The position numbers and the translations under genes are program-made. From Ianthella basta (lineage: Eukaryota; Porifera; Demospongiae; Verongiida; Ianthellidae), in contig OZ025877.1 of the NCBI GenBank assembly GCA_964019415.1, forward strand, positions 3,682,039 through 3,746,038: a DNA stretch of 64,000 nt, written 5' to 3'. Of the stretch, positions 56,096 to 57,304 are shown one piece after another; the stretch's first letter is position 1, and each line of letters opens with the position of its first letter. The notes under the pieces were generated by a model, which was given only the letters and a program-made list of their open reading frames with translations, was not told the DNA's origin and ran no database searches.

Positions 56096-56231
56096 GAGTG
56101 ACTGTGTAGACCATATGCATGAGGTTCACAGTACGTAGATCTGTATAAATGAAGTGAGGGCTTCTCAGCTGGCTCAGTCATCAGAAAGGGTTGTTCTCTA
56201 ATACCAGCTTCACAACAGGGTTGAAAACCTT

Positions 56232-56270
56232 GCCGACGTTTCGACCAGATGCTCTGGTCTTCTTCAGGGC
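56232..56270 (-). ncRNA. Hammerhead-ribozyme-like motif, left Penelope repeat
   Basis: On the minus strand: GCC, CTGAAGA, hairpin GACCAGA/TCTGGTC, GAAAC, GTC, GGC, identical in core to the motifs at 43557 and 57228. The inverse orientation at the two ends of one element is typical of Penelope terminal repeats. Confidence 0.53.
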
Positions 56271-56344
56271 GAAGATAGGCTAGCGCAAGCACGGATCATA
56301 TTTATAGCCTAGCATCTCATCATGCGCTGTCACCGGAAGCCACA

Positions 56345-57062
56345 TCAAGGGGTGTCACCAGAAGTTGCGGGATTTGCCTTCCTCAAGGCGGCCATCCAAC
56401 ATCCAGGCAGCTCCAGCCCACCATCCCTGTTGAGGGAGGGGTGGTTCAGCCTGATGTGGATTGCCTCCTTGAGCATCAGTTCTTTGGAGGTCCTGGCTTG
56501 GTCGATCACTGTTGTCTCCTCCCATTTGATTGGATGGTGGTTCTCCCACGCATGTTCTGCAAGGGCTGACTTCTCCAGTGTCCCCTTCTGACAGGCATCT
56601 CGGTGCTCTTTCATTCTTGTCTCGAGCCTCCTCAGTGTCTCCCCAATGTAGATCTCGCCACAGCTGCATGGGACTTGATACACCACCTTGGACTTCTTCT
56701 CCAGCGCCAGTGTGTCCTTCACCTTGCATAGCATGGAACGTAGAGACAGTCCAGACCTGAAGACAACCTTCATGCCAAACTTCTTACAGACCCGTCTGAT
56801 GTCCTCACTGACTCCTTCCGTGTAGGGAAGCATCACCAGTGGGGGTCTGCGTCCCTCCTCCGGCAGTGGCTCCTCAGTGTTCTCCACATCTCGCCTGGAA
56901 GGAAAGGATGAGGAGCGGATGAAGTTACTGGGGTAACCGTTCTGTCTCAGCACCTCGGTGAGGTGGCACTCTTCCTTCTGTAAGTCCTCCTGCCTGGTGG
57001 TGATGCTCCTTGCTCTGTCGTACAGACATCTGACCAGCCCTCTTTTGACGTGAGATGGATGG
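56345..57062 (-). CDS. Penelope-like element GIY-YIG endonuclease (partial)
   Basis: The open frame runs from about 57062 (no start codon visible, HPSHVKRGLVRCLYDRARS) to a stop at 56345. The linker downstream of the missing reverse transcriptase is followed by VVYQVPCSCGEIYIGET, the GIY-YIG core variant of Penelope-like elements with its upstream CxC, then RRLETRMKEHR with catalytic-type Arg, and a C-terminal EAIHIRLNHPSLNRDGG typical of these proteins. The GIY-YIG domain cuts target DNA to start reverse transcription. Without the RT domain this copy cannot move itself. Confidence 0.85.
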
Positions 57063-57227
57063 ACATACAGTCTGAAACATATTGAACGTTATTGCTGAAA
57101 AGCAGTGATATTTCTGTTATGTTATCATGCCTGTTCTAGCCAACTTGTAATGTGCAACGAATTCAGAGTTAGATGCTAGGCTATAAATATGATCCGTGCT
57201 TGCGCTAGCCTATCTTCGCCCTGAAGA

Positions 57228-57266
57228 AGACCAGAGCATCTGGTCGAAACGTCGGCAAGGTTTTCA
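57228..57266 (+). ncRNA. Hammerhead-ribozyme-like motif, right Penelope repeat
   Basis: Plus-strand copy with the same order of core boxes: CTGAAGA at 57231-57237, stem II hairpin, GAAAC at 57246-57250, GTC, then GGC. Stem I is only three pairs next to the core and stem III is minimal, so cleavage might need a dimer. Confidence 0.53.
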
Positions 57267-57304
57267 ACCCTGTTGTGAAGCTGGTACTAGAGAACAACCC
57301 TTTC

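What the first reader, a model, noticed from the sequence alone, without database searches (positions are those of the whole stretch)
56148..57304. Penelope-like element with a hammerhead-like motif at both ends and a clean target duplication
Seen directly: inverted terminal repeats, each with CTGAAGA, a 7-bp hairpin, GAAAC and GTC in hammerhead order; a GIY-YIG endonuclease ORF between them; an 11-bp target duplication. Known: Penelope-like elements encode GIY-YIG endonuclease and often hammerhead ribozymes in their terminal repeats. Inference: a recent insertion, since the target duplication is perfect.
Basis: partly seen in the sequence, partly recalled or inferred. Interest (0 to 1): 0.8.

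Follow-up and report, generated by a model that had tools for sequence, protein, structure and literature searches.

The report
Two-headed insertions of a Penelope retrotransposon
This is an ordinary kind of animal jumping gene (a Penelope-like element with a tiny ribozyme-like motif), but its copies suggest that each insertion starts copying from both cut DNA strands, once from each of two fixed places on the RNA.

Summary
In detail: a 5'-truncated Penelope-like element (PLE) fragment with a GIY-YIG frame, two outward-facing 135-nt pLTR arms (99% identical), hammerhead-type motifs in both arms and a perfect 11-12-nt target duplication. PLEs with inverted pLTRs and minimal hammerheads without helix III are already published, so the element is a new member of a known kind.

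(1) One end carries a 35-nt 'tail', the other does not. In all resolved two-armed insertions with a target duplication (63 of 63: 39 window/C1, 13 long ORF copies, 11 of a second PLE family) one end starts at the tail site and the other upstream of it, typically by 25-35 nt. One-armed insertions use either site (4:4). (2) The 110 bp at the inversion junction exactly copy DNA about 350 bp beyond the insertion; four other insertions also carry copies of their own flanks.

Best explanation: both 3' overhangs of a staggered cut prime reverse transcription, one at each of two adjacent RNA start sites, and the two cDNAs are joined at the target. This fits published in vitro behaviour of an Anolis PLE and disfavours the published self-priming explanation. 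Ribozyme cleavage is untested.

The parts
56136..56147 (.). left copy of target-site duplication TAGATCTGTATA
57305..57316 (.). right copy of target-site duplication (base 57305 shared with the arm)
56148..56182 (-). 35-nt tail: extra 3' end of the left arm, absent at the right end
56183..56317 (-). left pLTR arm (3' end of the direct half)
56223..56276 (-). hammerhead-like motif in left arm (q42-q95 of the arm)
56345..57062 (-). 5'-truncated PLE ORF segment (C-terminal part of the ORF)
56468..56686 (-). GIY-YIG endonuclease domain (residues 135-207 of the 247-aa frame)
57063..57172 (+). 110-bp filler at the inversion junction, identical to 57663-57772; no shared base at its left edge, AG shared at its right edge
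57663..57772 (+). flanking source of the filler
57171..57305 (+). right pLTR arm, inverted, without tail
57212..57265 (+). hammerhead-like motif in right arm
43460..43678 (.). second insertion of the same family in the window: no-tail arm 43460-43552 (-) and tail arm 43557-43678 (+), TSD GCTTTCAATTG(G) at 43449-43459 and 43679-43689

Best explanation
A Penelope-like retrotransposon insertion made by two-headed target priming. The endonuclease makes a staggered cut with 3' overhangs of roughly 10-13 nt (inferred from TSD plus geometry). Each overhang primes reverse transcription of element RNA, one at the tail site and the other typically 25-35 nt upstream at the no-tail site (shown as a per-insertion rule; the priming step is inferred). 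Both cDNAs run toward the RNA 5' end. Their 3' ends are then joined at the target, by microhomology or by short synthesis on nearby DNA: here 110 bp of the right flank (copying shown; repair pathway inferred). Filling in the overhangs gives the TSD. Most likely one RNA, held by a dimeric RT, serves both strands (inferred). The hammerhead-like fold is probably a weak or protein-assisted ribozyme; the inner ends give no sign that the template was cleaved.
For: Orientation: among the first 100 exact core matches (all on contig C1), neighbours within 1 kb are 26 (-,+), 0 (+,-), 2 (++), 1 (--), so 3' ends face outward. End rule: 39 of 39 two-armed TSD insertions in the 62 window/C1 loci, 13 of 13 resolved long ORF copies besides the window's own, and 11 of 11 independent TSD insertions in family B have one tail and one no-tail end. 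If all were independent and each end chose at 50%, the chance is 2^-63. 31 distinct inner junctions among 38 tabulated insertions show that most are separate events. One-armed TSD insertions: 4 tail, 4 no-tail. Junction DNA copied from the insertion's own flank in W56, L079, L081, L085 and L113; the W56 filler has only 2 places in the genome search, filler and flank. Arms of one long insertion differ at 0-3 of ~708 nt (7 insertions), against a median of 8 in 399 other comparisons; 4 of 5,040 re-pairings do as well. Literature: the Anolis PLE protein cleaves and extends both strands and starts at two adjacent internal RNA sites that bound the tail (PMC11167929, parts 1-2 of 4 of the main text).
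Against: PMC11167929 reports no apparent difference in start site between strands; this fits only if either strand can take either role. Low arm-to-arm divergence could also come from gene conversion or from two RNAs of one source locus, and some copies of different insertions are also identical over ~708 nt. For one RNA to serve both arms, the trailing RT must displace the leading cDNA; not tested. L123 (no TSD) has no tail at either end; the family B pair L154/L155 has no tail at either end, no TSD and a truncated right end. L072 and L099 start 17 and 33 nt upstream of the usual no-tail site (q135), and L140 in family B starts 44 nt upstream of its partner's end. Eight single arms had no convincing TSD. 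The sample leans to short copies, because most fetched stretches were 340-640 nt. All evidence is from one genome.
Confidence: 0.8

Rival explanations
1. Self-priming on an antisense transcript: the RNA folds back, a hairpin cDNA with inverted arms forms first and is then integrated (proposed for Adineta PLEs).
For: Head-to-head arms with palindromic junctions, the published reasoning (PMC3846280, Discussion read). The sequence TCTTC...GAAGA at q43-q57 can fold back. A cDNA that always stopped ~33 nt early could mimic one tail.
Against: Junctions made before integration should not contain DNA copied from the insertion's own flank, yet 5 insertions do. One-armed insertions with TSD occur with either start.
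Confidence: 0.07
2. Snap-back: a single target-primed cDNA folds on itself and is copied, making the second arm.
For: It does seem to occur: L081 and L085 carry inner tail/tail arms with inverted copies of the flank.
Against: A snap-back arm should have the same start as its template and be followed by inverted flank. The other two-armed TSD insertions have different starts and direct TSDs, and in L081 and L085 the outermost ends still obey the tail/no-tail rule.
Confidence: 0.04
3. Dual priming on two separate RNAs: one RNP per strand, with some rule that forces different starts. This is a sub-version of the best explanation, so the odds overlap.
For: Arms overlap over the same RNA stretch, which classical L1 twin priming does not give; two-mRNA 'dual priming' has been proposed for L1 (PMC2837659, passages).
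Against: Two RNAs choosing independently predict about half same-start insertions; 0 of 63 with TSD are. Arms of one long insertion are near identical, though both RNAs could come from one locus.
Confidence: 0.3
4. MITE-like DNA transposon: short copies with terminal inverted repeats moved as DNA.
For: 23 of 38 tabulated insertions are 200-235 bp with inverted ends and a TSD (sample biased to short copies).
Against: 31 distinct junctions among 38 copies, copies with ORF, exact TSD length varying 10-15 nt, ends unequal by the tail; GIY-YIG and RT matches.
Confidence: 0.02

Closest known systems
Endonuclease-containing Penelope-like elements (Penelope/Poseidon type)
   Same: GIY-YIG at the C-terminal end of the frame, inverted pLTRs, a ~31-35-nt tail at one end, short TSD; [quoted passage not shown]
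   Different: Here the tail rule is counted over 63 insertions and two families, and some junctions are copies of the insertion's own flank
Poseidon of Anolis carolinensis (PAc), in vitro system
   Same: Two adjacent internal RT start sites bounding the tail; both target strands cut and extended; hammerhead near the ORF start (PMC11167929, parts 1-2 of 4)
   Different: What I read of that work does not connect the two starts to the two arms of one insertion; sequence relation to this element not tested
Minimal hammerhead ribozymes of PLEs
   Same: Hammerhead core with stems I and II and no helix III (PMC6155905, passages)
   Different: An extra A lies between the core and stem II in both families here; no cleavage data; no Rfam hit
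LINE-1 twin priming / dual priming
   Same: Inverted segments within a TSD from priming on both strands (PMC2837659, passages)
   Different: In L1 twin priming the two segments are different parts of one RNA; here both arms cover the same RNA stretch, and inversion is the common outcome (39 two-armed against 8 one-armed with TSD in the window/C1 set)

Membership tests
Endonuclease-containing Penelope-like element | GIY-YIG endonuclease domain | tested here: met
   PF01541 23.6 bits, cut-off 22.6. Against: the 695-aa sibling frame, which contains this segment, did not list GIY-YIG at E 0.01 or better
Endonuclease-containing Penelope-like element | reverse transcriptase upstream in the same frame | tested here: inconclusive
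   Absent from the truncated window copy. A sibling 695-aa frame (L010) scores RVT_1 27.8 bits, E 2.4e-6, just under Pfam's cut-off 29.6, and ends in the window's segment at 97% identity
Endonuclease-containing Penelope-like element | telomerase-related RT by phylogeny | not tested
   no tree made; no PDB relative by sequence at E 0.1
Endonuclease-containing Penelope-like element | pLTRs in direct and/or inverted arrangement with optional tail | tested here: met
Endonuclease-containing Penelope-like element | short target-site duplication | tested here: met
Hammerhead ribozyme (minimal PLE type) | core CUGANGA ... GAAA and UH cleavage triplet (definition recalled) | tested here: met
   CTGAAGA, GAAAC, GTC in both arms
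Hammerhead ribozyme (minimal PLE type) | stems I and II flanking the core | tested here: inconclusive
   Stem II in every family A fold; stem I in 2 of 4 stretches tried (q42-q95, q42-q135; not q36-q100 or q42-q170) and not in the piece. Both stems pair with different sequences in family B, though its minimum-energy fold also pairs part of the core
Hammerhead ribozyme (canonical, Rfam) | helix III / covariance-model match | tested here: not met
   no helix III in the fold; no Rfam hammerhead to E 10
Hammerhead ribozyme (minimal PLE type) | self-cleavage | not testable with these tools
   needs in vitro transcription
MITE / TIR DNA transposon | copies share one internal sequence and a fixed TSD length | tested here: not met
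   31 distinct junctions of 38, exact TSD 10-15 nt

The most novel reading that the evidence does not exclude
PLE integration is two-headed by design: a dimeric RT on a single RNA uses two start sites ~30 nt apart, giving each target strand its own cDNA of the same RNA region. The tail and the inverted pLTRs, long treated as quirks, are the direct trace of that asymmetric complex. It is a mode of target-primed insertion distinct from LINE/R2 insertion.
Probability: 0.5. Interest if true: 0.72.

Novelty: new member of a known kind. Interest (0 to 1): 0.58.

Why it matters
How Penelope-like elements insert is open (PMC11167929 speaks of additional steps yet to be validated). A rule of one tail start plus one no-tail start per insertion, with some junctions made from local DNA, would tie the tail, the inverted pLTRs, the TSD and the two in vitro start sites into one mechanism. 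It makes a sharp prediction that one linked-strand or barcoded-RNA experiment can check. It would also explain how one PLE can scatter large numbers of short palindromic repeats that look like MITEs (inferred from 1,730 core matches).

Tried and rejected
Rfam at gathering and at E 10 gave no hammerhead, nor did six further loci of families A and B, where miRNA models matched the palindromes below their cut-offs. Pairing of minor variants in the short arms was nearly uninformative because the copies are too alike; most differences came from arms cut short by my parsing, so I do not use its permutation. A first arm comparison forgot that loci are on the + strand and was redone. Empty site: the right flank has paralogues from the TSD onward at 37774-38096 and 41024 onward, but the left flank does not, so no clean empty site was found. 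A conserved stem-loop around the start sites: z -2.0 in family A but positive z for the three family B pieces, so not claimed. PDB relatives: none. Hammerhead cut as the RNA 5' end: not supported in these copies, as 0 of 76 inner arm ends fall at q80-q112 (cut after q83) while 45 of 76 fall at q42-q46 (for loci with split hits the end of the outermost hit was used).

Rows dropped before the main count. The C1 loci come from the first 100 exact places; 15 of the 100 (segmental duplicates and long copies) were not in the set. Of 62 window/C1 loci, paired 40. L094 was dropped as a second copy of L086's site, and L081 was re-paired, leaving 39. Not counted: L092, L096, L098, L102 (different ends, no TSD), L123 (same ends, no TSD), L075 (copy of L074's left flank, second arm truncated), 8 one-armed with TSD, 8 single arms without a convincing TSD (L087, L095 and L108 had only weak distant matches). 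TSDs were scored with one mismatch allowed. Of 30 ORF loci (L009-L038), 21 fell into 14 resolved insertions (one is the window's own) and 9 were not resolved. Family B: 13 opposed core pairs read by eye. One is a segmental duplicate, one lacks tail and TSD, 11 remain (10 scored, one by eye).

Full report
What is there. The window holds a 1,157-bp insertion at 56148-57304 flanked by TAGATCTGTATA. Read on the minus strand it is the C-terminal part of a Penelope-like ORF with a GIY-YIG endonuclease domain, then a pLTR, then a 35-nt tail at 56182-56148. At its other end is a second pLTR copy in inverted orientation, without the tail. Both arms are 135 nt and 99% identical. Each carries the hammerhead core. 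The stretch q42-q95 of the arm folds into the two hammerhead stems with the core open and no helix III, but two of four stretches tried fold otherwise around stem I. A second PLE family in the genome (family B, about 50% protein identity) has the same core with stems I and II changed in sequence yet able to pair, though its minimum-energy fold also pairs part of the core. No Rfam hammerhead model recognises either family. Passages of PMC6155905 say that PLE hammerheads usually lack helix III, so this is expected. q positions count along the minus-strand arm plus tail, 170 nt.

Positions 57063-57172 do not belong to the element. They are an exact copy of 57663-57772, about 350 bp beyond the insertion, and a genome search with 108 nt of it finds only these two places. 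Compared with sibling copies, the element sequence breaks off at 57062 and resumes at the inverted pLTR. The left edge of the filler shares no base between element and flank, and the right edge shares AG. So the inversion junction was sealed with DNA copied from the insertion's own neighbourhood.

The family. The genome (209 Mb, unnamed) has 850 + 880 matches to a 29-nt pLTR core and 633 + 597 to a 26-nt tail stretch, at up to 2 mismatches, with none for the reversed controls. Among the first 100 exact core matches, neighbours within 1 kb are 26 times (-,+), never (+,-), twice (++) and once (--). A common form is therefore two arms with their RNA-3' ends outward; 23 of 38 tabulated insertions are only 200-235 bp in all, in a sample that leans to short copies because most fetched stretches were 340-640 nt. 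The window holds one such short copy at 43460-43678.

The end rule. I read 62 window/C1 loci. Two arms with a TSD were found in 39 (40 paired; L094 dropped as a duplicate, L081 re-paired). In all 39 one end stops at q165-q170 (tail) and the other at q133-q144, or further in (L072 q118, L099 q102). Thirteen long copies with ORF, besides the window's own, obey the same rule; 9 of the 30 ORF loci were not resolved. In family B, with a different tail sequence, 11 of 11 independent insertions with TSD do so. Of the ten scored, nine have their no-tail end at q98-q106 of the family B query, 25-32 nt before the tail end, and one (L139/L140) lies 44 nt before it; the eleventh (L156/L134) was read by eye. 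That makes 63 of 63. Exceptions without TSD are one pair with no tail at either end (L123) and one such pair in family B (L154/L155). One-armed insertions with TSD use either start, 4 and 4 (two of these, L113 and L115, have filler between the arm and the TSD). The inner junctions are diverse, 31 different ones in 38, so most are separate events and not inheritance from one copy.

Junctions. Besides the window element, L079 (59 nt, 95%), L113 (43 nt, 95%, inverted), L085 (24 nt, inverted) and L081 (126 nt, 99%, inverted, plus 19 nt of the other flank) contain copies of their own flanks at the junction. L115 has a 62-nt filler without match in the 541 nt held. L085 and L081 look like true snap-backs: their inner arms are tail/tail and carry inverted flank, while their outermost ends still obey the rule. 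They serve as internal controls showing what snap-back looks like.

Template. In 7 long insertions with both ORF arms, the arms differ at 0-3 of ~708 nt, against a median of 8 among 399 other comparisons (some of which are also 0); 4 of 5,040 re-pairings, the observed one included, reach the observed sum. Both arms thus come from one RNA or from RNAs of one source, unless gene conversion has evened them out. Inner ends cluster at q42-q46 (45 of 76), about 30 nt after a TATA-like stretch, and none of 76 lie at q80-q112, where the hammerhead cut (after q83) would put them. This agrees with PMC11167929, where ribozyme mutants did not affect insertion in vitro.

Mechanism. A staggered cut leaves 3' overhangs. 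Each primes reverse transcription, one at the tail site and one at the upstream site, and the two cDNAs meet and are joined at the target by microhomology or by copying nearby DNA. The end rule and the local copying are shown; the priming, the one-RNA step and the repair pathway are inferred. PMC11167929 shows for an Anolis PLE that the protein cuts and extends both strands and starts at two adjacent internal sites that bound the tail; in what I read (parts 1-2 of 4, which hold the results and the mobilisation scenario; no supplement) it does not link them to the two arms of an insertion, and it reports no apparent difference in start site between the strands. PMC3846280 (passages, Discussion) notes that the tail is optionally present on one of the inverted pLTRs and explains the inverted arms by self-priming, which it says would have to occur on an antisense template. 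That does not account for junctions copied from the target locus. LINE-1 twin and dual priming (PMC2837659, passages) are the nearest relatives in logic.

Novelty. My paper searches covered open-licence PMC papers only, and I saw no statement of the one-of-each rule in the listings or in the papers opened. Look-ups of three further PLE or hammerhead papers failed, and the older Penelope literature was not available, so priority is not established. The element itself is ordinary for its class.

Noticed in passing
57305-57641; 37774-38096; 41024-41351: The right flank from the TSD onward is a diverged repeat (about 80-82%) with two other copies in the window; the left flank is not part of it.
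   Followed up: partly
45768-47122, minus: Fragment of a different retrotransposon: reverse transcriptase RVT_1, E 1.7e-29 in 46367-47122, followed by a second frame without Pfam match.
   Followed up: no
9797-9869, minus: tRNA-like gene above Rfam's gathering score (33.1 bits), with two non-pairing positions in the acceptor stem.
   Followed up: no
12747-14252, minus: 501-aa open frame rich in hydrophobic stretches, no Pfam match at E 0.01.
   Followed up: no
tail end of families A and B (window 56148-56170 minus; L134): Both PLE families share GAGAA...CTCACTTC just before the tail start although the rest of the tail differs (sequences); possibly part of the start signal.
   Followed up: partly
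L076, L089, L119: Some inner junctions carry repeated or folded pieces of the element itself, as if a cDNA end switched template several times.
   Followed up: no
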